A stretch of DNA of 64,000 nt from Actinokineospora sp. NBRC 105648 (GTDB taxonomy: Bacteria > Actinomycetota > Actinomycetes > Mycobacteriales > Pseudonocardiaceae). A program made the translations under genes and the position numbers. The notes beneath the pieces were generated by a model, which was not told the origin of the DNA, searched no databases, and saw nothing but the letters and a program-made list of their open reading frames with translations. Positions within the stretch are counted from its first letter, which is position 1. Each line of letters opens with the position of its first letter. Of the stretch, positions 7,165 through 54,123 are shown piece by piece. Where the stretch lies: the NCBI RefSeq assembly GCF_030269645.1, contig NZ_BSTR01000003.1, positions 186,001 through 250,000 on the forward strand. Reading direction: 5' to 3'.

Positions 7165-7753
7165 GTGAACCTCGTCTCGCGCTACTACGACGCCGCCCGA
7201 GCCCGTTTCAGCGGGAACACCTTCGGCGTCGCGGGTCATTCGAAACCACCTGGCCCCCGTACTCGTGCGGCGAGCGCTTCCGGCCGGCGATCACCCCGCC
7301 GCTGCCGGCACCCGAGGTCCGGATCGCGCTCCTGCCCGGCGGCAGCGCGACCGGTCGCGCTATCCGTCGGTGCGGTCGTGGCAGCTGGTGATCACGCGCC
7401 GGCCGACCGGTTCCCGGACGCGACGTTCCTGCTCGTGGGCAAGCGCGCCGCCGACGGCCGCACGGCCACCACCTACACCGCCGCCGGGCTGGAGGCGATC
7501 GAGCAACAAGTGGCCCGAGTACTACTTCACCGGCGTGCCGTTCCACTCGGTGCTGCCCGACATCGCCCGCTTCCCCTGCTACACGATGATGGGCCTCGAC
7601 CCGACCCCGGTCGAGGACGACGGCCCGTGCTCGCCGAACATGAGCCGCGAGCGGATCACCGCGGACCTAGCCGAGATCGTCGAGGGCGCCGCGCGACTGG
7701 TTGAGCGACGACTGCCGTACCGGACGGCACTGGCCGACCAGGCCCTCCGGTAG
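7165..7753 (+). pseudogene. Frameshifted gene remnant of unknown family next to the transposon end
   Basis: No single frame covers this stretch, but protein-like segments occur in successive frames. First is a WPPYSCGERFRPAITPPLPA-like part. Second, near 7400-7500, is HAPADRFPDATFLLVGKRAA and DGRTATTYTAAGLEAIEQ. Third, from about 7505, is WPEYYFTGVPFHSVLPDIA with CYTMMGLDPTPVEDDG and SRERITADLAEIVEGAARLV, ending at the TAG at 7751. This fits one gene broken by at least one frameshift and abutting the left end of the Tn3-family element. The family was not recognised. It could also be two fragments. Confidence 0.4.
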
Positions 7754-7793
7754 CGCACGCCGAGAAAACAACGATTAGCCGTTGGTCTGCTGG
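7753..7793 (+). repeat. Left terminal inverted repeat of the Tn3-family element
   Basis: It shares with the right end the outer GCGC-R-CGCCGA, then AAAACAACGATT-R-GCCGT, then a 6-base divergent patch and GCTGG. One extra G is inserted here relative to the right copy. The 38-40 bp length and purine-rich middle fit Tn3-family ends. Confidence 0.8.
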
Positions 7794-7871
7794 ATCCCGA
7801 GGTGTTGCCGTGCGGGAGAACATTGGGTCGGTGTTCCCGGTCGACGGTGGTTCGGCCGGGTCGGTAGGCGG

Positions 7872-8708
7872 TCAGGGGGTCTTGTGCCAGGGGGCGTCGG
7901 GGTCAGTGAGGGTGTCGAGTAGGAGTTGGCACCAGGTGACCGCGGCGTTGACGGCGAGGTGGGCGTGTCGGGGGTGGAGTCCGACGCGGGGGCCTGCTGC
8001 GCCGTGGCCGGTGCCGTAGCCGCGGTTGCGGAGTTCGCCGAGGCCGGTGGCGATGGTGGTGACGGCGCCGAGGATCTTGCGGACGGCGTCGCTGCCGTCG
8101 GGGCCTGGCGAGCTGGTGGAGGGGTGTAGGCCGAGGGCTTGCTGGGCGGCGCGTGCGAGTGCGGGGAGGTCGTCTTTGTCGTTGACTGGGCGGCCGCGTT
8201 CGGTGAGTACGACCTTGGCGGTGCTCTCGATGAGTTCCTTGGCGCTGCCGATGGCCAGGGCTGGGTCGTCGATGATCGCGCGCTGGATGCGGTCGAGTTG
8301 TTCCTGGATGGCGGAGGGGTCGGTGAGGGCGGCCAGGGACCGCAGCGTCCGAAGTGGGGTGGGGTCGGTGGGCGGGGTGATCCGGCCGGTCGTGGAGTCG
8401 ACGGTGCAGCCGTCGCGGCGTAAGGAGTGGTGGAAGCGTTGCAGGTCGGCGGTGTCGGGGGCCCATTCGGCGAGCAGTCGCTCGAATGCCCGACAGGCAC
8501 GGCCGACGTGGGCGGGGTCGGTCCAGTCGACGGATTCGAGGTACTGCTGGGTGGTGGTCCGCCGCACGCTGGAGTCGTCCCAGGTGCAGTCGGGGTTGGG
8601 GGCGAAGCCCTCGTCCTGGAATGCGTCGGCGACGCGCCTGTAGCTGCTGATGTCGGTCATGAGCTGGCGGAACTGGCCACGGGTGCTGCGGCTGATCAGA
8701 TCTTTCAC
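7872..8708 (-). CDS. Abi_C-domain protein (putative abortive-infection protein)
   Basis: 278 aa, GTG start whose GTGA overlaps the stop of the resolvase, so the two are translationally coupled. The C-terminal half fits the Abi_C domain (PF14355 as recalled): DDPALAIGSAKELIESTAKV with VLTERG, then DLPALARAAQQALGL, AVRKILGAVTTIATGLGELR followed by NRGYGTGHG, and a final helix HAHLAVNAAVTWCQLLLDTL. The N-terminal 130 residues are unassigned. Abi_C proteins occur in phage-exclusion loci; the activity of this one is not known. Its placement as transposon cargo supports a defence or element-competition role, which is inference. Confidence 0.75.
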   Translation of the reverse strand: MKDLISRSTRGQFRQLMTDISSYRRVADAFQDEGFAPNPDCTWDDSSVRRTTTQQYLESVDWTDPAHVGRACRAFERLLAEWAPDTADLQRFHHSLRRDGCTVDSTTGRITPPTDPTPLRTLRSLAALTDPSAIQEQLDRIQRAIIDDPALAIGSAKELIESTAKVVLTERGRPVNDKDDLPALARAAQQALGLHPSTSSPGPDGSDAVRKILGAVTTIATGLGELRNRGYGTGHGAAGPRVGLHPRHAHLAVNAAVTWCQLLLDTLTDPDAPWHKTP

Positions 8709-9682
8709 GCTCGGGCCTTGTCCTGGTGGGTTGGTGCCGCGGCCGTGAACTCGGCGTGGGCGGCGGCGACGGCGTCGGGGTGGCGCTGGCGGCGTTCGTG
8801 GTCGGCCAGGGCGCGGTAGATGCTGGCCAGGCTGGGGTTGCGGCCCTTGTTCTTGCCGGTGGGGATGATCAGGTCGGGGCGGATGTCCTCGACGGACTCG
8901 CCGCGGGCGCGGCGGCGCAGCACGGTGTGCAGCATGTCCTCGGTGATGACCGGCGGGCGTCCGCCGTGGTTTCCCTTGCGGGCGGCGGTGTTGAGTCCTT
9001 CGAGGGTGGCTTCGCGGATGTTCTCGCGTTCGGTCTCGGCCATCGCGGCGAAGAACGCGAACAGCATCCGTCCGCTGCCCGACGGGTCGTAGATGCCGGT
9101 GAGGGGTCCGGCGAGCATCTCCAGGGCGATGCCGTGGGCGGTGAGGTGGTCGGCCAGCGCGGTGAGCTCGGCGGAGTCGCGGCCCAGTCGCTTCATCTCG
9201 TAGACGGTGAGGATGACCCGGCAGTGCGGGGCGTGGGCCTTGATCTGCCGGCAGGTGTCGAGAGCCTTCTCGAACTTGGGACGCACGCGCACGCGGGTGG
9301 AGACCTTCTCGGCGAAGACCTTGTCGGCCGGGATGCCGTGCGCGGCCAGCGCGTCGAGCTGGGTGCGCAGCTCCTGGGTGAGGTGCGAGCAGCGGGCGTA
9401 GCCGATGCGGATGTCGGCGGCCGGGCGGTCGTCGGGGATCGGCGCCGGGGGCGGGGTGCCCGGCCGCCACGGCTGACCCGGTGAGCGGTCGGCGGGGACG
9501 GGCACGCGCAGCAGCTTGGCCAGTCGGGGCACCTTGGTGAACCGGCCGGTGTGGTAGGTGGTGGCGACCGCGCCGGAGCGGGACCGGCACGGCGAACCCG
9601 GCTGGACCGCGCAGCGGGGGCACGGGTGCCGCTCGACCTCATCGGCGTCGGACGGGACGGCGGGTTCCAACTCGCTGTTCAC
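8705..9682 (-). CDS. tnpR: Tn3-type serine recombinase (resolvase) with an N-terminal zinc-finger-like domain
   Basis: 325 aa. The resolvase catalytic domain starts at about residue 91: IRIGYARCSHLTQELRTQLD, with the nucleophile Ser99. It continues with the core YEMKRLGRDSAELTALADHL and the long helix AFFAAMAETERENIREATLE, and ends in a helix-turn-helix. An 80-residue N-terminal extension has C21-x2-C24-x7-C32-x11-H44, a pattern found in actinobacterial CxxC...C...H small domains and not in classical TnpR. It resolves cointegrates at res. It is divergent from the cargo operon at 9914, with the res-like region between, and is followed by the Abi_C gene in a 4-base overlap. Confidence 0.9.
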   Translation of the reverse strand: MNSELEPAVPSDADEVERHPCPRCAVQPGSPCRSRSGAVATTYHTGRFTKVPRLAKLLRVPVPADRSPGQPWRPGTPPPAPIPDDRPAADIRIGYARCSHLTQELRTQLDALAAHGIPADKVFAEKVSTRVRVRPKFEKALDTCRQIKAHAPHCRVILTVYEMKRLGRDSAELTALADHLTAHGIALEMLAGPLTGIYDPSGSGRMLFAFFAAMAETERENIREATLEGLNTAARKGNHGGRPPVITEDMLHTVLRRRARGESVEDIRPDLIIPTGKNKGRNPSLASIYRALADHERRQRHPDAVAAAHAEFTAAAPTHQDKARA

Positions 9683-9689
9683 CCCGGAA

Positions 9690-9830
9690 TCCTCTCACAA
9701 ACATTTCTCAAAACTAGGTGGCGACACGGTTTGAGTGAGAACGGGTTGTGAGAGAATAACCGGCCTGCGTAGGCCGTCTCGGAGGTGCTCTCGGCATCCT
9801 TCTCGAAATGGATCGTTTTGAGAAGTGACT
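9690..9830. promoter_or_regulatory. Putative res site: three dyads built on TTCTC / GAGAA
   Basis: Two facing copies (CTCTCACAA...TTCTC at 9692-9713 and its near-complement GAGAAC...TTGTGAGAG at 9737-9754) form one large inverted repeat. A third dyad, CTTCTC-GAAA...TTTT-GAGAAG, lies at 9799-9824. Tn3-family res regions hold three resolvase-binding dyads beside tnpR. This region starts 8 bases from the resolvase start codon and probably contains its promoter as well. Confidence 0.65.
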
Positions 9831-9913
9831 AGGCCGGATGGCCCTTGTGGAGTCAGTGGATAGCCTTTACTGTTCATCTTTAGTAGAGATTGGCAATTAA
9901 TCATGGAGGTCGG

Positions 9914-10258
9914 GTGGACAGCTACGAGGCACTGCGCACCGCAGTGGCGAACAACGACGGACTGCGCAAGACCACGATGGACACGCTCAAGAAGATCCAA
10001 GGGGCGGGTCGACTCGGGGTACACGTACGCACCGAGATCAGCCGGGCCCTCGAATCACACGGTCTCGGACACCTACCCCAGGAGCTTCCACCGAACCAGG
10101 AGGACGTGGTGCGGCTCTACCTGCTGGGCAGCCCGGTCGCCGACATCATCAAGGCGGTCCTGAACCCTAGCGACCGGGGCGACGAGACTCTCCGGTCCAT
10201 CGGCGGCTCCGAAGCCGAGGACCTGCTGCGCCAGATCCGGCAGCTCGTCTGTGGCTGA
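9914..10258 (+). CDS. Unknown 114-aa protein coupled to a NYN nuclease
   Basis: GTG start preceded by GGAGGT (spacing 3); a TTG at 9890 is a less likely alternative. The protein is helix-rich and charged, starts VDSYEALRTAVANNDGLRKT and has a conserved-looking middle, EISRALESHGLGHLPQELPP followed by LYLLGSPVADIIKAVLNP. There are no membrane segments or known motifs. It ends a few dozen bases before the nuclease start, and an alternative start of the nuclease frame overlaps it. The arrangement (small protein, then RNase-fold protein) resembles toxin-antitoxin pairs, but that is inference. Confidence 0.7.
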   Translation: MDSYEALRTAVANNDGLRKTTMDTLKKIQGAGRLGVHVRTEISRALESHGLGHLPQELPPNQEDVVRLYLLGSPVADIIKAVLNPSDRGDETLRSIGGSEAEDLLRQIRQLVCG

Positions 10259-10292
10259 CCCCGCGTTTCCCCACTACAAGAAAGGCACTCCC

Positions 10293-10853
10293 ATGACCCT
10301 GTACGTCTACGTCGACAACTCCAACATCTGGATCGAGGGCCAACGCATCCAAGCGGTCCGCACCGGCCTGGCCCCCGACGTCCGCACCGCGATGGCACGA
10401 CAGATCACCGCACCCTGGACCTACGACTTCGGTAAGTTCTACGACTTGCTCTGTCCACCGGACCAGTTCGTGGGCAGATCGATCCTGTTCGGCTCCAGAC
10501 CACCGGAGAACGACAGCATCTGGCAGAAGGTCCGCGACGCCGACTTCGAGGTGGTGACCTTCGACCGCAGCGTCTTCACCAACAAGGAGAAGCAGGTCGA
10601 CACCGCCCTGGCCACCAAGATGCTGGAGGACTCCTTCACCTACATGAAGTCCGACAAGGGGGACATGGCAGTCCTGGCCGCCGGTGACGGCGACTTCCTG
10701 CCCACGATCCGCTCGTTGCAGGGGCGCGGTCTCGGAGTGCGGGTCGTGTCCTGGAAGCACGCCGTCAGCCGCGAGCTCCGCGACACAGCCGATGAGTTCG
10801 TCGAGCTCGACCCTCACTTCGACTACCTGTCCAGGCCGCCGTCTATCTCATGA
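10293..10853 (+). CDS. NYN-domain (PIN-like) putative RNase
   Basis: 186 aa from ATG 10293 (GAAAGG upstream). NYN/LabA features: Y-V-D8-N-S-N at the N-terminus (YVYVDNSNIWIEG), the central acidic helix KQVDTALATKMLED, and MAVLAAGDGDFLPTIRSLQG with acidic residues followed by GLGVRVVSWKHAVSRELRD. These acidic residues build the Mg-dependent nuclease site in the PIN-like fold. The protein probably cuts RNA. Coupling to the 114-aa upstream gene and residence on a transposon suggest an addiction or defence module (inference). A strong terminator follows. Confidence 0.85.
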   Translation: MTLYVYVDNSNIWIEGQRIQAVRTGLAPDVRTAMARQITAPWTYDFGKFYDLLCPPDQFVGRSILFGSRPPENDSIWQKVRDADFEVVTFDRSVFTNKEKQVDTALATKMLEDSFTYMKSDKGDMAVLAAGDGDFLPTIRSLQGRGLGVRVVSWKHAVSRELRDTADEFVELDPHFDYLSRPPSIS

Positions 10854-10914
10854 CTGCACCAACGGCCAAGCAGCCGCGTGCGCGGATCGCGCCCCGCCGG
10901 TCGAGGTCGAGCAA

Positions 10915-10953
10915 CATCACAGCGTCCTGGCCAGCGGCCAGGACGCTGTGATG
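10915..10953. terminator. Bidirectional hairpin between convergent cargo genes
   Basis: Perfect 18-bp stem (arm CATCACAGCGTCCTGGCC and its complement) around a 3-base loop. It lies between the 3' ends of the NYN gene (+) and the kinase gene (-), so it can serve both. Confidence 0.85.
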
Positions 10954-11040
10954 AAGGCGCACAGCTGCGGTGCGCTGGCACGGCGGGGTTCCGTGCGACC
11001 AACCGGTCAGCTGGCCGGTACGTGCGGCCGCGCATGGTGG

Positions 11041-12522
11041 TCAACGGCGGCGGAAGCTGTTCTCCGGGCGCCGTTCGGGCATCGAGTTGGGGTGGCTCAG
11101 CCTGCCGTTCGAGGCTGTGGCCAACCATCCCGCCCACCTGCCGATGAACTCGTCCAGGTCGTCCACGGTCAGCGGTGTGAACGGCCAGGCAAGCTGCCAC
11201 TCCGCCATGCCGGTCCACAGTGCCTTGGCCGCCTCCGTGCCGGGGTCGAGGGCAAACGGATCCTGCCGCACCGGCCGGTTGAGCAGGGGCGACACCATGA
11301 ACGCCGTCTCGAACCACTGGTAACTGCCCTGGCCGGTGGGGGCGGCGTCGCAGAACCACAACGAGTGCTTGCGCCCCTCGTAGCCGTACCTATCGGCCGG
11401 GATGAGCAGATCGATCTCGGCGTGCGCGATCACGTCGAAGCCAGGGCGGTCCCACGAACCCCACGCCGATTCCGCCGTCCGCGTGGGACCGGTCAGGGTG
11501 AGCACAGCCTGCCCCAAGTGGATCTCCCAGCCGCCACCGCGCACCGCCCGGACGGTGGCTCCCGGGGCGTTACTGGTCAACGCGTCCTTGAAGGCGTCGG
11601 CGATCCTGGTGAAGCTGCGCGTGGCCGCCTCGAACAACCCTGCGCGCCGCTGCTGCTCCGACTGCGCCACGGACTCCGCTCGCACCGACGCGGCCTTGCT
11701 GACGGCTTGGGCGCGGTTGGACTCCTGCAACGCGGCCAACCCGGGTGAGGCAGCCTGTTCGGCCGCGCGTTCGAGGCGCTTGACCAGGTTCACGGCGTTG
11801 GGGCGGGCCTGCGGGGACTTGTACAGACACTCCTCCACCAACGCGGCCAGTACCGCCGGGGCGGACACCAGGTGCGGCACGTCGCCGTGCAGGTGCGCCT
11901 CGCGCAGTTCGTGGACGTACCCGCCGGTGAACGGCGGAGCGCCCGACAGCAGTTCGTAGGCGATGCACCCGAAGGAGTAGACGTCGGTGGCGGCGGTGGC
12001 ACGTTCGTTGCTCCACCGTTCCGGGGCCGCGTAAAGCACGGAGAAGGCACCCTTGCGCGTGTCCGGGGCGGTCGTGGCGTCCGCGTAGCGGGCGATACCG
12101 AAATCGGCCAGGCACCAGTGGCCGTCGAGCAGCAACACGTTGCCCGGTTTCAGGTCACGGTGCACGACGCGGCCTTCCAGATCGGCCAGCGTCACCGCGA
12201 TGTCGCGCAGCACCGCCACGGCCGAGCCGACGTCGAGAGAGCCGTCGACCTGCTTGAGATGTTCTTCCAGAGAGCGTTCCGCGCGTGGCATGACCAGCAC
12301 CCACGCGTCGTCGGTCTCACCATCGTCGATGATCGGCACGACGTTGCGGACCCCGTCCAGCTCCGCGAACAGCAGTTCGCGCTCCGCGCCAGGCTCCTTC
12401 GGCACCAGCTTGACCGCACCGTTCACCCCCGACTCGGAACGCGCCTCCAGCACTTGGCCGTAGCCGCCCCCACCGATCCGGTCGCCGAGCTCCCACACAC
12501 CGTTCTTGCAGGTAACACGCAT
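11041..12522 (-). CDS. Ser/Thr protein kinase with an unknown C-terminal domain (transposon cargo)
   Basis: 493 aa from ATG 12522 (GGAG upstream); an upstream ATG at 12597 overlaps tnpA and is less likely. The kinase domain (about residues 8-275) is complete: glycine loop GDRIGGGGYGQV, AVK Lys38, HRDLKPGN at 121-128, DFG at 140-142, YAAPERW, and DVYSFGCIAYELL. About 220 residues follow without membrane segments or PASTA repeats. They include a helical linker, then RAVRGGGWEIHLGQAVLTLT and a Trp-rich end (WTGMAEWQLAWPFTPL). Chromosomal actinobacterial STPKs usually have a membrane anchor, which this lacks. As mobile cargo it may act like phage-responsive kinases such as Stk2 (analogy only). 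Confidence 0.85.
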   Translation of the reverse strand: MRVTCKNGVWELGDRIGGGGYGQVLEARSESGVNGAVKLVPKEPGAERELLFAELDGVRNVVPIIDDGETDDAWVLVMPRAERSLEEHLKQVDGSLDVGSAVAVLRDIAVTLADLEGRVVHRDLKPGNVLLLDGHWCLADFGIARYADATTAPDTRKGAFSVLYAAPERWSNERATAATDVYSFGCIAYELLSGAPPFTGGYVHELREAHLHGDVPHLVSAPAVLAALVEECLYKSPQARPNAVNLVKRLERAAEQAASPGLAALQESNRAQAVSKAASVRAESVAQSEQQRRAGLFEAATRSFTRIADAFKDALTSNAPGATVRAVRGGGWEIHLGQAVLTLTGPTRTAESAWGSWDRPGFDVIAHAEIDLLIPADRYGYEGRKHSLWFCDAAPTGQGSYQWFETAFMVSPLLNRPVRQDPFALDPGTEAAKALWTGMAEWQLAWPFTPLTVDDLDEFIGRWAGWLATASNGRLSHPNSMPERRPENSFRRR

Positions 12523-12593
12523 CGAACCATCTCCGTTCACACCAGATCCAGAAATGTTAAACACCGGGTCCGACGACGTCGGACCAACGGCGG

Positions 12594-15500
12594 TCACAAG
12601 CCTGGCGAGGGGCGGTCACGGAGCGGGCGGAACCCTTGGCGGGCGTACTCGGCCTCGACCGGGAACTCGTAGGTGCCGTACGGGTTGACGTGTTCCATCA
12701 GCGCCGGGGAGACGTGGGCGAGCAGGTCATGGTCGATGCGGCCGCGGCGGGCGGCCAGATGTTCCAGGGCGAGTTCGAGGTAGGCGGTGTTCCAGGTGAT
12801 GATCGCGTTGACCACCAGCGATAGGCACAGGGCCTGTTCGGTCTGCTGGTCGTGGTGGCGGCGGCGCACCGAGCCCTCGTGGGCGAAGAACAGGTCGCGG
12901 CGCAGGCTGTGCAGCGACTCGCCCTTGTTGAGCTGGCGGGTGATACGGCGCCGGTAGGCCTCGTCGGCGAGGTAGCGCAGCGCGTAGAGGGTGCGCTGGA
13001 GCCCGCCGAACTCGACCAGGGCCTGGGCGGTGGCCGAGCGGCGGGAGGAGGCGTGCAGCCTGCCGACCACCAGCGAGGCGGTGGTGTGCCCGTACTTCAG
13101 GCTGGCGGCCAGGCGCAGCATCTCGCCCCACTGCGACCGGATCAGCCCGACGTTCACGGTTCCGGTGAGCAGCTTTCCCGCGTTGGGGAACGCGCTGGTC
13201 AGGTCCTTGCGGGAGCCGAGACGGTGCAGGGTGATGCCGCCCAGGTCGCGGATGCGCGGGGACAGGGTGAACCCGGTCAGGTTGAACAGGGAGAACACGG
13301 TAAGGGTCTGGCCGGCGGTGTCGGTGGCGTGCTCGGTGATGGGCAGGTCGGTGGCGTTGCCCAGGATCTCGTCGAGCACGTAGACGGCTTTGCGGTCGGT
13401 GACAGGGATGACCTTGGTGCCGTAGGTGGTGTGCTGGTCGGAGACGTGGGTGTAGGTCGACACGCCCTCGTCGACGAAGTACCGCGACATCGCCCGCGCG
13501 GTCAGGCTTTTGCCCCGCATCGGGAACCGCTGTCCGTCTGAGGACGACATCGTCCCGCCGCCCCACACGCTCGACAGCGGCAGCGTGTGGTGGTGATCGA
13601 CGATCGCGGCGTTCGCCGCACGCAGCGTGTCCTCGCGTAGGTACCACTCGGTGGTCCAGGCCAGGGTGTCGTAGGAGATGCCGGAGGCCTCGGACATGGC
13701 GGTCAGGCCGAAGTTGCAGGCCTGCGCGAGGATGGCGGCGTAGAGGTTGCGCCGCAGCTGCGGGTCGCGGTGGGTCTTCCCACCGGCGTGGGTGAGCCGG
13801 TCCGACCACGACGACCAGCGGTCGACCTCAATGAGCAACTCGGTCAGCTGCGGGCGCGGCAGCAGGTCCACCAGCTGCAGGCGCAGCTGCTCGACCGCGT
13901 CGGGCACCGCCATCGCCGACAGCCTGGAGACGACGACCTCGCCCTTGTCGGTCATCCGCACCGGCCCGTCCCCACCGGTCAGCAGCGGCTCCAACTCGCC
14001 CAGCGCGGCGCGCAACTGCTCGCCAACCCGCTCCAACGCCTCGTCCGCGCTCGGCGGGACGTCGACCAGCGCGCAGTACTCCGCCCGCATCCCCTCCCAC
14101 TTCCCAGGCGGGAGCAGCAGGGTGGTCGGGTCGGCGTAGCGGCGCGAACCGGGCACCCACACGTCCCCCGAGCGCAGCGCGTCGCGCAGGCCCAACAACG
14201 TGCACAGCTCCCAGTAGTGCCGGTAGGCGGTGGCATTGCCGGTCTTGCGCGCGTGGTCGAGGTAGCCCCGCCAGCGGGTCGGCACGAACTGCGCCCGCGC
14301 CCCGTCCGGCACCTTGCGCCCGCCCTTCGCGTACAACTCCCGCAACACCTCCACCGCCTCGACCAGCGGCTTCGCCTCGGCCGAGCCGACGAACTCCAGC
14401 GCGGCGACAACGTGCGGGGCGAACTCCCGCAGGTAGGCGAAGCTGGCGTCGATCAGCGCCAGGTGCCCGTGGTCGCGCTGCAACCGGTCGCGCGGGTCAC
14501 GCCGCGCCGCCCGCAGCCGGTCCATCCCGATCCCGCGCCGCAGACGGTCGCCGACCTCGACGTCGGCGACCGTCTCGTCCACCGCCACCGCGAGGATCTC
14601 CTCCAACAGGTCCAGCTTCCGCTCCGATGCCTTGGCCCGCGCGACCAACAGCTCATCGAGCCTGCGGCGGGCCCGGCCCTCCGTCCCGGAGACGGCCTGG
14701 TCGAACATCTGCACCAACTCGTCGAGCACCTCCACCGAACACTCCGCCACCGTCGCCAGCAGCACCGGGAACCTCGTGTCCTCCCCACGGCGGGCCAGCG
14801 CCTGGTTGCTCGCGCGCCGCCCCACCCCGGCCAACCTGCGCCGTCGCGCCTCCGGCAGCCCCGACAGGTCCAGCCGGTGCGCGTCCAACCCGCGCAGATA
14901 GCGCAGCTTGTCCAGCTCGCCCCGGATCGCCATCGGCGAGGCACTGGTCGCGCCGCGGTGCAGCCACGCCAGCCGGGAGACCGACATGCCCTCCTCGACC
15001 ACCAGCAGCCCGTCCAACTCCGCACGACGCGCCCCGGACAGCAGGTGCTCCACCCGCCCGAACACCTCGCCCACGGCGGAGCGACGGACGGTGGCGATGT
15101 GCTCCATCAGCGAGACCACACCCGGCCGCACGACCTTCGCCGAGTGCAGGTACTCGCACCCCAACCGGAACAGCACGCTCGGCGCGTCGTGCTCGATCGC
15201 CCGCGCCAGCAGGAACTCCTCCAAGTCCTTCCACTCCGCCCGGCCCGCGGTATGCCACCCCAACCGGTCCGCGACCACCCGCAGATGCTCCGTGCGGGTC
15301 TGCGCACGGGCTCCGTAACCGGCCAGGTCCGCGATCGGGATCCCCAACTGCACCCCGACCCTGTTCGCCGCGGCCGCCGGCACCGCGGCGACGTCATCGG
15401 GCACGAACCCCAACCAGGGCAACGTGCACAGCTGGATCGCCATCCCGATCCGGTTGCTTGTGCCCCGGGCCGCGCCCTCCAACCATGCTCGGTCGTCCGA

Positions 15501-15605
15501 GCCGAGGGTGAAGTGACGGATCAACTCGTCCCGGCCCAACTCCTCCGGCCACGACCGCAGCCGCCTGATCTCCGCATCGGAGAAGAACTTCGTCGACACC
15601 GCCAC
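12594..15605 (-). CDS. tnpA: Tn3-family transposase TnpA
   Basis: 1003 aa, the usual length for the family. The N-terminal DUF4158-type end-binding region starts MAVSTKFFSDAEIRRLRSWP; the C-terminal catalytic domain keeps the DDE triad: D690 in SSSDGQRFPMRGK, D762 in TEHATDTAGQT, and E896 in LNKGESLHSLRRDLFFAHEG. It catalyses replicative transposition through cointegrates. The GTG start lies about 110 bases inside the right terminal repeat. The frame is intact, so the element may be active. The kinase gene follows after 71 bases on the same strand. Confidence 0.97.
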   Translation of the reverse strand: MAVSTKFFSDAEIRRLRSWPEELGRDELIRHFTLGSDDRAWLEGAARGTSNRIGMAIQLCTLPWLGFVPDDVAAVPAAAANRVGVQLGIPIADLAGYGARAQTRTEHLRVVADRLGWHTAGRAEWKDLEEFLLARAIEHDAPSVLFRLGCEYLHSAKVVRPGVVSLMEHIATVRRSAVGEVFGRVEHLLSGARRAELDGLLVVEEGMSVSRLAWLHRGATSASPMAIRGELDKLRYLRGLDAHRLDLSGLPEARRRRLAGVGRRASNQALARRGEDTRFPVLLATVAECSVEVLDELVQMFDQAVSGTEGRARRRLDELLVARAKASERKLDLLEEILAVAVDETVADVEVGDRLRRGIGMDRLRAARRDPRDRLQRDHGHLALIDASFAYLREFAPHVVAALEFVGSAEAKPLVEAVEVLRELYAKGGRKVPDGARAQFVPTRWRGYLDHARKTGNATAYRHYWELCTLLGLRDALRSGDVWVPGSRRYADPTTLLLPPGKWEGMRAEYCALVDVPPSADEALERVGEQLRAALGELEPLLTGGDGPVRMTDKGEVVVSRLSAMAVPDAVEQLRLQLVDLLPRPQLTELLIEVDRWSSWSDRLTHAGGKTHRDPQLRRNLYAAILAQACNFGLTAMSEASGISYDTLAWTTEWYLREDTLRAANAAIVDHHHTLPLSSVWGGGTMSSSDGQRFPMRGKSLTARAMSRYFVDEGVSTYTHVSDQHTTYGTKVIPVTDRKAVYVLDEILGNATDLPITEHATDTAGQTLTVFSLFNLTGFTLSPRIRDLGGITLHRLGSRKDLTSAFPNAGKLLTGTVNVGLIRSQWGEMLRLAASLKYGHTTASLVVGRLHASSRRSATAQALVEFGGLQRTLYALRYLADEAYRRRITRQLNKGESLHSLRRDLFFAHEGSVRRRHHDQQTEQALCLSLVVNAIITWNTAYLELALEHLAARRGRIDHDLLAHVSPALMEHVNPYGTYEFPVEAEYARQGFRPLRDRPSPGL

Positions 15606-15717
15606 ACCACCCGTCTAGAAGATCAACGACGGGCACATCCTCACGACGCTCTCGCAGCAGACGGAGCCGGGGCCTCACCGGCCTACCTTGCCTCCACGAG
15701 CCATCTCGCAGTTCTGA

Positions 15718-15757
15718 CCAGCGCTAACACGGCCAATCGTTGTTTTTCGGCGCGCGC
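15718..15757 (-). repeat. Right terminal inverted repeat of the Tn3-family element
   Basis: Read on the minus strand it matches the left end (GCGC-R-CGCCGA, AAAACAACGATT-R-GCCGT, GCTGG), with one base fewer than the left copy. It lies upstream of tnpA. Confidence 0.8.
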
Positions 15758-15893
15758 GACCGAGAGGCCGACCACGTCACCCGGATGTCCGCCGTGGGCA
15801 GCCTGGCGTGGCCGGTGGACAACGCCACCAGCTCCAGTGATCCGCCGCAGCGGGCGCAGTCTCCTTGCGGAGACCAGGCGCTGCGCCGGGGTG
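15758..15893 (-). pseudogene. Possible gene fragment with half a zinc ribbon, cut by the transposon
   Basis: The minus-strand frame reads GDCARCGGSLELVALSTGHA then RLPTADIRVTWSASRS and continues directly into the transposon end, where it stops. The C-x2-C knuckle with no second knuckle looks like the N-terminal part of a zinc-ribbon protein truncated by the insertion. No convincing start codon is visible. Evidence is weak, and it does not obviously join to the remnant on the left flank. Confidence 0.25.
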
Positions 15894-25453: not shown

Positions 25454-26140
25454 TCACGCGCGGGTCATCCGATAGGTGAAGTACTCGGCCGTCCAGTCGT
25501 CACGGGTGTGCGTGGCGGTGGCGAGGGTCTCGCGCCGCAGCCCGGTCTTCTCGGCCTGGGCGTGCAGGTGCCCGATGTCCCCGGACGTACCGAAGAAGAT
25601 CAGCACACGGCCGCCGTCGGCGAGGTGCTCGTCCAGACCGGCGAAGAAGGCGTTCATCGCCCGGTAGCCGTGGTCGGTGATCGCGGCCTCCACCGGCGAA
25701 CACGGCTCGAACCAGCGGAACGGCGGATCGAAGACCACGAGATCGAACCGCCCCTCCACGGCGGAGTAGACATCACTGTGCCGAACGACGACATTGCCCA
25801 ACCCGTTCCGCTCCACATTGGCCCGCGCGGCCTCGACGGCAGCAGGATTGACATCAACGGCCACCACCTCACCGGCGGTCCGGGCGGCGAGCACGGCGTT
25901 GACACCACAGCCAGTCCCCATGTCCAGGACACGATCACCGGGACGCACCTCGGCCAACACGGCCTCGCCGAGCAGGTGGGAGACACCGGTGATGGGGTGC
26001 ACGTCCCCAGGGATCACCAGAAACGCGCCGAGGTAGTCGAGGGCCAACTCACTCTGGTAGGCGGAGTCGATGACGACGCTCGCGTGCCAACGGCGAATCC
26101 GCTCGGCATGCTCGGCATCCATAGTGGGCTCATGCTCCAT
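25454..26140 (-). CDS. SAM-dependent methyltransferase (RsmC/HemK-like)
   Basis: 228 aa from ATG 26140, which has TAGCGT 8 bases upstream (leaderless). SAM motif I is VLDMGTGCGVNAVLAA, motif II VVAVDVNPAAVEAARAN, and the catalytic-type motif FDLVVFDPPFRW replaces the N-P-P-Y of HemK/RsmC enzymes with D-P-P-F. Members methylate nitrogen atoms in RNA bases or glutamine side chains; the target here is unknown. It converges on the SPFH gene. Confidence 0.85.
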   Translation of the reverse strand: MEHEPTMDAEHAERIRRWHASVVIDSAYQSELALDYLGAFLVIPGDVHPITGVSHLLGEAVLAEVRPGDRVLDMGTGCGVNAVLAARTAGEVVAVDVNPAAVEAARANVERNGLGNVVVRHSDVYSAVEGRFDLVVFDPPFRWFEPCSPVEAAITDHGYRAMNAFFAGLDEHLADGGRVLIFFGTSGDIGHLHAQAEKTGLRRETLATATHTRDDWTAEYFTYRMTRA

Positions 26141-26372
26141 GGCAGACAACGCTAGCCACAAACCCCACACCCCTCCACCCATTTAGCCGACCACTACCCC
26201 ACGCCGCCAATCCACCGAGAACACAACCTCACAACCCACCCCAAGGAAACACCCTCGCAAACCTCCTCCATTCACCACAAAAACCCGCCCCAAAGCACCC
26301 CCAATCCGTTCAGGCACAACAAACCCACCCCCCAGACCAACTCTCCCCCTGCATTCCATACGCAGCCAAAAC

Positions 26373-26432
26373 ACGGCCTGCGGGTCTTTGTCAAGGTACT
26401 CTTTCCCGCCTTGACAAAGACCCGCAGGCCGT
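26373..26432. repeat. 24-bp perfect inverted repeat with a 12-base loop
   Basis: The left arm begins ACGGCCTGCGGGTCTTTG, continues TCAAGG (26373-26396), and is mirrored exactly at 26409-26432. It is too long for an ordinary terminator of a nearby gene: the nearest gene ends are at 26881 and 25454. It may be the stem of an RNA or a dispersed palindromic element. Confidence 0.8.
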
Positions 26433-26540
26433 AGTGATAATTGGCGTAGGGGATTCAGGGCCCCGGGTGGGTCACGCTCCACAGGCAGCACGTACGCCCC
26501 AGGCAGCGCATACACATGGGCTGCCCGATTTACAAGCAGG

Positions 26541-26679
26541 GCTCGATCTAGTGAACTCGCTTCGTGTGGGGCCCCTAGAGCACCGCGGTGGAGAGAAAAG
26601 GGCAGGGTAAGGGCATCCCCACCCACGGCAAGTTTAGCGGTGCTCTCCCCCCACACGAAGCGAGTCCACTAGATCGAGC
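26541..26679. repeat. 31-bp inverted repeat (one mismatch), MITE-like
   Basis: The arm at 26541-26571 starts GCTCGATCTAGTGAACTCGC and ends TTCGTGTGGGG. The partner at 26649-26679 is complementary except one base. Just inside, AGAGCACCGC and GCGGTGCTCT continue the complementarity after a short bulge. The total is about 139 bp, with a 45-bp imperfect stem. No coding capacity. Confidence 0.8.
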
Positions 26680-26711
26680 ATCCGTAGCGGGCGTTGCGTT
26701 CCAGCGCAGTC

Positions 26712-26839
26712 GGCCTAACCGCTGCGGTTTGCTGGGGGAAGGGATTTGCTTCGGTGTCGGTGTGGTCGGCCTATCCGCTGCGGCACCAGCGGGGTGGGGA
26801 TCTAATTGCGTTCCAGCGGAGTTGGCCTATCCGCTGCGG
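26712..26839. repeat. Three direct repeats GGCCTAWCCGCTGCGG, 56-bp period
   Basis: Copies at 26712-26727, 26768-26783 and 26824-26839, each starting exactly 56 bases after the previous one. The first and third copies are also preceded by GCGTTCCAGCGSAGT. The spacers differ, and the 16-bp unit is shorter than CRISPR repeats. Confidence 0.75.
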
Positions 26840-26880
26840 TTGTGGGCGGGGCGGCCGCAGGGTTTGCTCCAGGTGAGAGA

Positions 26881-27981
26881 TTAAGCCGGGATCGTTACCC
26901 TGGCTTCGGTGAAAGCTCGCGCTGCCGCCACTACCTGAGCTTCCTGCTCCACCTTCTTCCGTACCGCCGTAGACAGCTTCTCGAACGGCTCGACAGTCAC
27001 CTCCAGCCGCTTCCCTGCCGCCTTGGTGCGCCAGATCCCGGCGATCTCACCGCCAGCGAGGATCGCGCCTGGGTTGCTGATCATGCGCCACAGGCTCTTG
27101 CGGCGGGCCTCGTCAGGGACCAGCAGTTCGCGGTCGCGGGCTTGGAGCAGGGGGTCCAGTGGGGGGATGAGTCGCACGAGGTCCGGGGTGGGTGGGGTGC
27201 GCAGGTCGGGGAGGTCGCGTTCGTGCAGGTGGCGCGTCTTGCGCTCGACGGTGACCTCGACCAGGTCCGTGGGCCAGGCCGGTTTGGCCTGGGTCTGGGT
27301 GGTTTCCAGGAATCCCGCTGCCTCGCCGGGGCCGGCCGGGCCGTGGAGGTGGAGGTAGTTCTCGATCACCGGGGTGGGGTCGCCGGGGGAGTCGGGTACC
27401 GGGTGGCGCGGTGTCAGCGGGGTGAGCGTGGTCGGGCGGGATTCGGCGTGGACCTCGACGCCCGCGGCCAGGCCGATCAGTTGGAACAGGCTGCCGTAGA
27501 TGTGGGTCGCCTTGCAGACGGTGCAGTCGTAGGAGTACGGGGCGGGCAGTCGGGCGGTGATCTCGGTGCTGACCTGTCCGCGTGATTTCTCGGTGTCGAC
27601 CACGTCGCGCAAGGCCGTCGCGGCTGTTGTGTAGGCGGTCAGGCCGGAGACGCCCGCTTGCTTGAAGGACCTGCCCGAAGCGCCGAGTCGGGTGATGGCG
27701 TCGGCGTCGGTGCGGGGCCACAGGGCCTTGGCGAGCGCGGCCAGATCGGTTCGGCGGAGCAGGTGTGGTGCGCCGCGGTGGGCCCAGACCGTGGTCAGGG
27801 AGTCGTCATCGAGTGCGGTGCCCTCGGGCAGCCGGGCGGCGAGCGCGACCCGGGGTGATCGGGCGCCCGCGTCCTGGATGCCGAGGTCCAGGACGGTCAA
27901 GTCGCTCGCGGTGGTGGCGTCGCGGTGCAGGCCTTGGCGGGCGAAGCGGTAGGCGAGGACTTGCGCGCGGGTCACGTCCAT
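26881..27981 (-). CDS. AlkZ/HTH_42 winged-helix protein with an altered active-site motif
   Basis: 366 aa; the ATG at 27981 has CACAAT 6 bases upstream. The family pattern of tandem winged helices plus beta barrel is seen: N-terminal MDVTRAQVLAYRFARQGLHR, TVWAHRGAPHLLRRTDLAAL, and the C-terminal LLVPDEARRKSLWRMISNPG and AILAGGEIAGIWR. In AlkZ-type DNA glycosylases a Q-x-Q/D motif follows the first helices; here the aligned stretch reads LGIQDAGARSP (Q-D-A). It may therefore bind DNA without, or with changed, glycosylase activity. A small YDCTVCKATHIYG insertion carries two Cys. A paralogue with intact Q-A-Q lies at 30011. Confidence 0.8.
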   Translation of the reverse strand: MDVTRAQVLAYRFARQGLHRDATTASDLTVLDLGIQDAGARSPRVALAARLPEGTALDDDSLTTVWAHRGAPHLLRRTDLAALAKALWPRTDADAITRLGASGRSFKQAGVSGLTAYTTAATALRDVVDTEKSRGQVSTEITARLPAPYSYDCTVCKATHIYGSLFQLIGLAAGVEVHAESRPTTLTPLTPRHPVPDSPGDPTPVIENYLHLHGPAGPGEAAGFLETTQTQAKPAWPTDLVEVTVERKTRHLHERDLPDLRTPPTPDLVRLIPPLDPLLQARDRELLVPDEARRKSLWRMISNPGAILAGGEIAGIWRTKAAGKRLEVTVEPFEKLSTAVRKKVEQEAQVVAAARAFTEARVTIPA

Positions 27982-52634: not shown

Positions 52635-53207
52635 ATGCGCAAGCTCATCGTCAGCACCATCGTCTCGCTCGACGGCTACTGCGCCGGCCCTGGCGGCGAC
52701 GTCATGGCGCTGCCCATGGACCACGCGTTCGACGCGCACAACGCCGAGCGGCTGCGCGCGGCCGACACGCTGCTGCTGGGCGCGACCAGCTACCGCATGT
52801 TCAGCGGCTACTGGCCCGCCATCGCCGAGGACGAGAACTCCTCGGCCGACAACCGGGAGATCTCGCGGCTCAACGGCGCCATCGCCAAGGTCGTCGTCTC
52901 CGACACGCTCACCCCGGCCGACGGCGGCGCCTGGCGGGACACCACCGAGGTGGTCAGCCGCGAGCAGGCGCACGCCCGGGTGGCGGCCCTGAAACTGGGC
53001 CCGGGTCGCGACATCCTGGTCTTCGCCAGCCCCACGCTCTGGCACGACCTCGCGCGCGGGGGCCTGGTGGACGAGGTGCACGCGATGGTCGGCCCGGTCG
53101 TGCTCGGCGACGGTATCCCCGGGCTGGTGCGGGGCGACCTGCGGTTGTTGGGCACCCGCACGTTCGCGGGCTCGGACAACGTGCTGCTCACCTACGGGCG
53201 CCCCTGA
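52635..53207 (+). CDS. Dihydrofolate-reductase-like RibD C-terminal domain protein
   Basis: 190 aa, ATG after GGAGGCACTCC. Start MRKLIVSTIVSLDGYCAGPG, ADTLLLGATSYRMFSGYWPA, GPGRDILVFASPTLWHDLAR and VDEVHAMVGPVVLGDGIPGL match the YyaP/RibD_C group of NADPH-dependent reductases. The substrate is unknown. It is probably co-transcribed with the ECF sigma gene and under its control. Confidence 0.92.
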   Translation: MRKLIVSTIVSLDGYCAGPGGDVMALPMDHAFDAHNAERLRAADTLLLGATSYRMFSGYWPAIAEDENSSADNREISRLNGAIAKVVVSDTLTPADGGAWRDTTEVVSREQAHARVAALKLGPGRDILVFASPTLWHDLARGGLVDEVHAMVGPVVLGDGIPGLVRGDLRLLGTRTFAGSDNVLLTYGRP

Positions 53208-53239
53208 CCGGCTTGGGTTCGATCTATTCGAACGAGCGC

Positions 53240-53282
53240 GCGGGGTATCGCCGCCCACTTCTGGTGGGCAGCGATACCCCGC
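53240..53282. terminator. Hairpin between the RibD-C and ricin-lectin genes
   Basis: Stem GCGGGGTATCGC and GCCCAC pair with GTGGGC and GCGATACCCCGC, one internal mismatch, 5-base loop; between convergent genes. Confidence 0.85.
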
Positions 53283-53304
53283 ACGCGATCGGCTTCAGAG
53301 GAGG

Positions 53305-53856
53305 TCAGGAAAACGACCACTGCTGGTCGAGACCATGATGGCAGTCCCAGATGACCAGACGTGTTCCGTTGGCCGTGCTGCCGTTGTCGGCCAGCCCGAC
53401 ACACTTGTTGGACGGCGTGTTCTTGAAAGCGTAGTATCCGGTTGGCCAATCCCATTGGAATGACCACCGTTGATCCAGTCCGTAGTGGCAGTCCCACAGG
53501 ACCAGACGTGTTCCATTGGCCGTGCTGCCGTTGTCGGCCAACCCGATGCACTTGCCGTTCGGGTAACCGGAAGCAAAACTGCCGAGAGAGCCGTTGGCGC
53601 CGCCGTACCAGTACTGGTCCCGACCAAAATGGCAGTCCCACAGGACCAGTTCGGTCCCGTTCGCCGTGCTGCCGTTGTTGGCCAAGCCCACACACTTCGG
53701 ATTCGAGCTGGTCTCACTCCTGATAAGGTTGATGCTACCCGAAGAAGTGGACTGCGCCTGCGGCGTGGTTTCTGTGGCGTTTGCGGGACAGGAAGGTGCC
53801 AGTACCAGTGCCAGCGCCCCGAACAGCGCCAACGTCCTCTTGGAAATGACGCGCAC
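53305..53856 (-). CDS. Secreted ricin-type beta-trefoil lectin
   Basis: 183 aa from GTG 53856 with GAGAGG upstream. The signal peptide VISKRTLALFGALALVLAPS ends before PANA-TETT. The mature protein is one beta-trefoil with three nearly identical repeats: KCVGLANNGSTANGTELVLW, KCIGLADNGSTANGTRLVLW, KCVGLADNGSTANGTRLVIW. Each is followed by D-C-H and the Q-x-W motifs DQYW, DQRW and DQQW. It binds sugars outside the cell. Unlike most Streptomyces relatives there is no attached catalytic domain. The DNA is less GC-rich than its neighbours. Confidence 0.92.
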   Translation of the reverse strand: MRVISKRTLALFGALALVLAPSCPANATETTPQAQSTSSGSINLIRSETSSNPKCVGLANNGSTANGTELVLWDCHFGRDQYWYGGANGSLGSFASGYPNGKCIGLADNGSTANGTRLVLWDCHYGLDQRWSFQWDWPTGYYAFKNTPSNKCVGLADNGSTANGTRLVIWDCHHGLDQQWSFS

Positions 53857-54123
53857 GATAATACCTCTCCTCTCACATTCCTCTACTTGCGAAAAATGGG
53901 ATTCCAGGAGCGTTGTCCAAGAGCCGTGATCGAGGCGGTAGCGCAGCGGCCCACCTGATTGAGATCGTTTTCCTCCGACAGAGGACATCCGACCTGGTGG
54001 GACGGCTGCCACCTCGCGCACGAAGATCGATTCGAGCATGGGGCGTTCGGTGGATCACGTCAAGCCGCCGTTCGACGTTCACCGCCGAGCGGAGGAGTTC
54101 CGTTCCGATCTTCCTCGAACGTC
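53857..54123. other. Gene-free stretch upstream of the lectin gene
   Basis: It carries the lectin ribosome-binding site and probably its minus-strand promoter. No repeats, RNA gene or plausible open frame were seen; base composition is lower in GC than the flanks. Confidence 0.5.

What the first reader, a model, noticed from the sequence alone, without database searches (positions are those of the whole stretch)
7753..15757. Tn3-family transposon carrying Abi_C, NYN nuclease and kinase cargo: a possible mobile defence unit
The element is complete (TnpA with D690, D762 and E896, resolvase, res-like region, terminal repeats). Its cargo is not antibiotic, metal or catabolic genes. It is three proteins of types linked to phage or conflict biology: an Abi_C protein, a PIN-like NYN nuclease with a small partner, and a soluble Ser/Thr kinase with an uncharacterised C-terminal domain. 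I know of no described Tn3-family element with this set. That the cargo gives phage resistance is inference.
Basis: partly seen in the sequence, partly recalled or inferred. Interest (0 to 1): 0.85.

Follow-up and report, generated by a model that had tools for sequence, protein, structure and literature searches.

The report
Transposon with swappable conflict-gene cargo
This is a complete jumping gene of the Tn3 family in a soil actinomycete that carries an abortive-infection-type gene, a paired nuclease module and a protein kinase instead of the usual resistance genes, and comparison with relatives shows that such cargo is swapped at the element's own recombination site; a role against phages is likely but untested.

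Summary
Window 7741-15769 (8,029 bp) is a complete Tn3-family transposon with 37/38-bp terminal repeats and a perfect 5-bp target duplication (GACCA). Three congeners have the uninterrupted site.

Gene order is abi_C and tnpR (minus strand), res, small and NYN (plus strand), then kinase and tnpA (minus strand). Abi_C starts inside the tnpR stop and the kinase inside the tnpA stop (4-nt GTGA overlaps). The small-NYN pair sits beside the res crossover palindrome, the slot where known Tn3 elements carry toxin-antitoxin pairs.

A sister element in another genus (tnpA 98%, tnpR 96%, own TSD) carries AbiTii and a DndB-like protein instead. A third genome has small-NYN-kinase (97-98%) on a tnpA stump. 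The homology breaks fall at the res palindrome. More distant tnpA relatives carry heavy-metal genes.

Homologues of the small protein lie beside AbiE, Dnd, XamI R-M and Hma genes; one kinase homologue lies near CBASS.

Best reading: a Tn3 element with exchangeable conflict cargo, including an undescribed TA-like pair. Phage defence is plausible but untested.

The parts
7736..7740 (.). Target-site duplication, left copy (GACCA)
   Evidence: Identical to 15770-15774; empty site in three congeners
7741..7778 (+). Left terminal inverted repeat GGCCCTCCGGTAGCGCACGCCGAGAAAACAACGATTAG
   Evidence: 31/38 match with the right repeat, one 1-nt gap; conserved in the sister element L048
7872..8708 (-). 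Abi_C protein, 278 aa, with an RN...GTGH motif resembling that of HEPN-type RNases; GTG start overlaps the tnpR stop by 4 nt (GTGA)
   Evidence: Pfam Abi_C E 2e-23; PADLOC AbiJ E 5e-9 over the same domain; motif kept in the homologues checked, and overlap read in sequence
8705..9682 (-). Serine resolvase TnpR, 325 aa, with N-terminal zinc-finger domain (PF24623); GYARCS motif
   Evidence: Pfam; motif; 96% identical in L048
9692..9755 (.). Probable tnpR-proximal res subsites (CTCTCACAA...TTGTGAGAG inverted repeat)
   Evidence: Read from sequence; nearly identical in L048
9799..9825 (.). Probable res site I (crossover palindrome CTTCTCGAAATGGATCGTTTTGAGAAG)
   Evidence: Shared by window, L048 and L045; homology switches at its two edges
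9914..10258 (+). Small protein, 114 aa, putative antitoxin or partner; no Pfam match
   Evidence: 97% in L045; homologues at 33-90% in alignment A1; no Pfam, PADLOC or NCBIfam hit
10293..10853 (+). NYN (PIN-like) nuclease, 186 aa, putative toxin or effector
   Evidence: Pfam NYN E 6e-13; D8, D103, D132 and D134 invariant in 10 sequences
11041..12597 (-). Soluble Ser/Thr kinase, 518 aa (AVK, HRDLK, DFG), with an uncharacterised C-terminal domain; GTG start overlaps the tnpA stop by 4 nt
   Evidence: Pfam Pkinase E 2e-31; motifs; full-length homologues on plasmids
12594..15605 (-). Tn3-family transposase TnpA, 1003 aa (D690, D762, E896)
   Evidence: Pfam; NCBIfam NF033527 above its cut-off; residues
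15733..15769 (-). Right terminal inverted repeat GGCCTCTCGGTCGCGCGCGCCGAAAAACAACGATTGG
15770..15774 (.). Target-site duplication, right copy (GACCA)
7165..7740 (+). Degenerate target gene (resembles a glycosyltransferase by eye, no Pfam hit), interrupted near its 3' end; the reading continues at 15775-15813
   Evidence: Intact 356-369 aa homologues in three congeners; Pfam negative

Best explanation
A complete Tn3-family transposon, acquired since the split from its congeners, with exchangeable cargo positions filled by conflict-type genes. (1) TnpA and TnpR do paste-and-copy transposition and cointegrate resolution. (2) Just outside res site I lies a two-gene module, small then NYN nuclease, in the slot and order (<tnpR, res, A>, T>) where other Tn3 elements carry antitoxin and PIN toxin genes. 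I infer that the small protein restrains or recruits the NYN nuclease. (3) Abi_C, probably a HEPN-type RNase, is translationally coupled to tnpR, and the kinase to tnpA. (4) Modules are swapped between elements by crossover at the res palindrome (strongly indicated by sequence) and by replacement at the left end. (5) The cargo probably benefits the element and its host as abortive-infection or toxin-antitoxin functions that act on RNA, against phages or rival mobile elements. The anatomy of steps 1-3 and the homology breaks of step 4 are shown; small-NYN interaction, RNase activity, coupling of expression and phage protection are inferred.
For: Ends, TSD and empty sites. Sister element L048: same ends, own TSD GTTCC, TnpA 98%, TnpR 96%, but AbiTii (PADLOC E 2e-40), an unknown 316-aa gene, a 153-aa gene and a DndB-like gene; its left end keeps about 25 codons of Abi_C. 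L045: small, NYN and kinase 97-98%, on a tnpA stump, with a Mu-like/TniQ unit beyond the palindrome. Homology switches at the res palindrome. The TA slot and res-site exchange are as described for Tn3 TA pairs (PMC7157771). NYN partner swap: small in L032 and DndB-like in L033 and L035. Small partner swap: NYN or DUF3800-like genes. Small near AbiEi/ii, DndD, XamI R-M and HmaC. Kinase homologue near CBASS. 38 other genes of the window gave only generic PADLOC hits. Catalytic motifs intact.
Against: No assay. No cargo gene completes a PADLOC system on its hits, and kinase hits to PD-T4-6 and mad6 are kinase-domain similarity only. The small protein is also conserved beside nifV/nifH in Frankia-like genomes and often stands without a nuclease, so it may be a general regulator. 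Abi_C homologues in other genomes of the family are mostly not next to Tn3 genes. Structure models were too poor to identify the small protein or the kinase C-domain. The cargo set in this exact form is seen once; only parts recur.
Confidence: 0.6

Rival explanations
1. Addiction, not immunity: small-NYN is a toxin-antitoxin pair of a new family that stabilises the transposon, and Abi_C and the kinase are further maintenance or regulatory genes; phage resistance is incidental or absent.
For: Position and order match the TA slot of Tn3 elements, for which a stabilising role is proposed (PMC7157771). Homologues lie on plasmids, near recombinases and TA genes.
Against: The sister element has AbiTii and DndB-like genes instead of a TA-like pair. 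Defence genes lie near the small-protein and kinase homologues.
Confidence: 0.25
2. Regulatory passengers: the small protein is a DNA-binding regulator, NYN an RNA-processing enzyme and the kinase a signalling protein that tune expression of the transposon or of host genes.
For: The small-protein family is conserved next to nif genes in Frankia-like genomes. The kinase and abi genes overlap tnpA and tnpR (coordinates, sequence).
Against: Patchy distribution: the kinase family at E<=1e-100 in 1 of 396 phylum-wide genomes and NYN at E<=1e-30 in 1 of 395 class-wide genomes, the window's own in both cases. Conflict-type neighbours.
Confidence: 0.1
3. Unselected hitchhikers: the genes were picked up by chance and the association has no function.
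For: The exact combination is seen once in this form.
Against: All reading frames and catalytic motifs are intact; small-NYN-kinase persists at 97-98% in another genus even where tnpA has decayed; two different Abi genes occupy the same place in sister elements.
Confidence: 0.05

Closest known systems
Tn3-family transposons with toxin-antitoxin pairs (e.g. Tn5563a, Tn5044, TnXc4; Lima-Mendez et al. 2020, PMC7157771)
   Same: Tn3 DDE transposase, divergent tnpR, two-gene module with the PIN-like gene second, directly outside res site I; module exchange at res I
   Different: NYN instead of PIN_3 or PIN; partner unrelated by Pfam to the listed antitoxins; additional Abi_C and kinase overlapping tnpR and tnpA; tnpA faces the module
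Heavy-metal Tn3 elements of the same tnpA clade in the same family (L049, L051, L053, L054; 64-81% TnpA)
   Same: Related TnpA and terminal repeats (GG...CGGTAGC...GAAAACAACG.TTAG)
   Different: Cargo is P-type ATPase, MFS, rhodanese and similar genes (read from sequence); shorter, different resolvase at the far end
Tn7-like transposons with defence cargo (PMC8649781)
   Same: Transposon as a carrier of defence genes
   Different: Different transposase family; exchange at a resolvase site is not the mechanism described there (from the abstract and my own knowledge)
Abi_C / AbiJ-type abortive infection proteins
   Same: Abi_C domain with RN..GTGH motif
   Different: N-terminal half gave no AbiJ match at the threshold used; no phage test
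PD-T4-6 / MADS kinase MAD6 / Stk2
   Same: Ser/Thr kinase domain
   Different: C-terminal domain not shared; match limited to the kinase part

Membership tests
Tn3-family transposon | Tn3-type DDE transposase of about 1000 aa with catalytic D, D, E | tested here: met
   NF033527 851 bits against cut-off 500; D690, D762, E896
Tn3-family transposon | Terminal inverted repeats of about 38 bp at both ends | tested here: met
   31/38 match, conserved in the sister element
Tn3-family transposon | 5-bp target-site duplication | tested here: met
   GACCA on both sides; empty site in congeners
Tn3-family transposon | Site-specific resolvase with res site | tested here: met
   Serine resolvase; palindrome at a conserved place; recombination activity itself not tested
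Tn3-associated toxin-antitoxin pair | Two-gene pair abutting res site I | tested here: met
   small starts 89 bp after the palindrome, NYN 35 bp after small
Tn3-associated toxin-antitoxin pair | Toxin and antitoxin belong to the families described in Tn3 elements | tested here: not met
   NYN and the small protein match none of the listed families
Tn3-associated toxin-antitoxin pair | Second protein toxic and neutralised by the first | not testable with these tools
   Needs an expression assay
Abi_C abortive infection protein | Abi_C domain above gathering score | tested here: met
   82.6 bits against 24
Abi_C abortive infection protein | Blocks phage propagation | not testable with these tools
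   Needs a phage assay
PD-T4-6 / MAD6 defence kinase | Similarity beyond the kinase domain and above the NCBIfam cut-off | tested here: not met
   MAD6 103 bits against 460, residues 85-299 only; PD-T4-6 hits within the kinase part
Complete PADLOC defence system | All core genes of a system present | tested here: inconclusive
   Individual hits only; system rules were not run

The most novel reading that the evidence does not exclude
A Tn3 lineage acts as a shuttle for interchangeable immune modules: res site I is the swap point, expression of Abi_C and kinase is tied to resolvase and transposase, and small-NYN (with small-DUF3800 and DndB-NYN relatives) is an undescribed family of partner-swapping nuclease systems used against phages or rival mobile elements.
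Probability: 0.3. Interest if true: 0.78.

Novelty: new variant of a known kind. Interest (0 to 1): 0.58.

Why it matters
Tn3 elements are best known for spreading antibiotic and metal resistance. If this lineage spreads immune or addiction genes by swapping them at the resolvase site, the same machinery that resolves transposition also assembles defence cargo. It also offers a small, testable two-gene system (small-NYN) whose partners swap between nuclease types and whose relatives sit beside several known defence systems.

Tried and rejected
Abi_C as recurrent Tn3 cargo: an Arthrobacter plasmid has Abi_C next to a Tn3, but the terminal repeats leave it outside, and most Abi_C homologues in the family are not beside Tn3 genes. 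AlphaFold models of the small protein (pLDDT 50) and kinase (45) were too poor for fold search, so none was run. PDB sequence search with the small-protein profile: no credible hit. Viral contig searches for kinase, Abi_C, small and NYN: no relatives. Class-wide search for NYN to count partners: no further member at E<=1e-30 in that sample. Nearly full-length copies of the element on plasmids: none. Reading the PD-T4-6 and mad6 hits as family membership: rejected, kinase-domain similarity only. Literature search for Tn3 elements with phage-defence passengers: no matching paper in the held library; subscription journals and preprints are not covered.

Full report
What is there. The ends were reset by comparison with a sister element found in another genus of the same family (G105, locus L048). 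Both elements begin GGCC and end in ACAACGATT(A/G)G, 38 bp (37 on the right here), and each is bounded by its own perfect 5-bp duplication: GACCA here and GTTCC in L048. Joining the window's flanks and comparing with congeners G544, G545 and G548 gives uninterrupted homology across the junction. The target is an already degenerate gene whose intact 356-369 aa homologues lie in these congeners. The genome has no second full-length tnpA of this type.

Anatomy. Abi_C starts inside the stop codon of tnpR, and the kinase inside the stop codon of tnpA, both as GTGA overlaps (coordinates; sequence). So one cargo gene is probably translated with resolvase and another with transposase (inference). The small gene and NYN run the other way from res. 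Their GC (66 and 63%) is below that of the flanks (73%). Abi_C keeps an RN...GTGH motif in the homologues checked, which fits the Rx4-6H RNase motif of HEPN proteins loosely (6-7 spacer residues from the first R; PMC3710099). NYN keeps its acidic residues in all ten sequences aligned. The kinase keeps AVK, HRDLK and DFG.

Cargo is swapped at res. L048 matches the window from the tnpR gene to the right edge of the palindrome CTTCTCGAAATGGATCGTTTT(T)GAGAAG (9799-9825), then differs until tnpA. L045 (G110) matches from the left edge of the same palindrome through small, NYN and kinase into the last 128 aa of tnpA, and on its far side carries a Mu-like transposase and TniQ. Three copies that share the palindrome and switch at its edges are what crossover at res site I would leave. 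The same exchange was described for toxin-antitoxin modules of Tn3 elements, which with TnpR resolvases lie just outside res site I (PMC7157771). At the other position, L048 has AbiTii (PADLOC E 2e-40), a 316-aa protein weakly like a PADLOC candidate, and a 153-aa protein, and keeps about 25 codons of Abi_C, so an Abi_C gene was probably replaced there. Between res and tnpA it has a DndB-like gene. TnpA relatives at 64-81% (L049, L051, L053, L054) carry metal and transporter genes with another resolvase, so the conflict cargo marks a sub-lineage, not the clade.

Where the cargo occurs elsewhere. NYN is paired with small in Streptomyces griseoruber, and lies directly downstream of a DndB-like gene in Micromonospora okii and Specibacter cremeus. 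Small is paired with DUF3800 or DUF3800-like genes in three settings (G342 by Pfam; G396 and Rhodococcus plasmids by mutual similarity and motif only), one of them beside a Tn3 transposase. It lies near AbiEi/AbiEii (G377), DndD (Aureimonas), XamI R-M (Gordonia) and HmaC (R. rhodochrous). It is also conserved beside nifV/nifH in Frankia-like genomes (names nif and Frankia are my reading of the sequences), which is not a conflict setting. The kinase has homologues near a CBASS operon in Variovorax, near a TIR-domain gene in G141, and near the ends of linear Streptomyces plasmids beside a helicase gene. As a rough control, 38 other genes of this window gave only generic PADLOC hits (mad2, WYL, CARF, Cas3c). 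This control is small and not matched for mobile DNA. Gene calls in unannotated loci are my own GC-frame calls.

How it most likely works. Transposition and resolution are ordinary. The res-proximal pair most likely acts as a nuclease held by, or guided by, the small partner; the partner swaps (small-NYN, small-DUF3800, DndB-NYN) are typical of conflict modules. Abi_C most likely cleaves RNA on infection. Whether the benefit is phage resistance, exclusion of rival elements or addiction is open; I give about 60% to a conflict function that includes immunity and 25% to addiction alone.

Limits. No experiment. The two structure models failed. Rare families limit statistics: NYN (E<=1e-30) in 1 of 395 class-wide genomes and the kinase (E<=1e-100) in 1 of 396 phylum-wide genomes, the window's own in both. 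The literature library is open-access only, so absence of a described Tn3 element with this set is weak evidence of novelty.

Noticed in passing
L126-L131 (Frankia-like family f19): A homologue of the small protein is conserved next to nifV/nifH/nifD-like genes in these genomes; its role there is unknown.
   Followed up: partly
L084, L097, L098: Kinase homologues (54-55%) lie near the ends of linear Streptomyces plasmids beside a DEAD/DEAH-type helicase gene.
   Followed up: partly
L087 (Variovorax plasmid): A 41% kinase homologue lies a few kilobases from a CBASS operon (cyclase, E2, effector).
   Followed up: partly
window 8705-9682: The resolvase has an N-terminal zinc-finger domain (PF24623); close relatives are on 97 actinomycete plasmid records, and in several fetched neighbourhoods no Tn3 transposase is next to them.
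   Followed up: partly
L045 9581-12688: On the far side of the res palindrome G110 has a Mu-like transposase and TniQ, which suggests exchange between Tn3 and Tn5053/Tn7-like elements at res.
   Followed up: partly
L033 8617-10603, L035 8715-10591: DndB-like genes directly upstream of NYN nucleases, a possible two-gene system without other dnd genes noticed nearby.
   Followed up: no
window 7165-7740 and 15775-15813: The gene hit by the transposon was already degenerate (frameshifts, deletion) compared with three congeners.
   Followed up: yes
window 26001-27000 and 53001-54000: Two further stretches of low GC (62-63%) in a 72% GC window; not examined.
   Followed up: no
L133, L134 (G396): The small-DUF3800-like pair and its surroundings occur on two contigs of one genome, with an inverted repeat of the region; duplication or assembly effect.
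   Followed up: no
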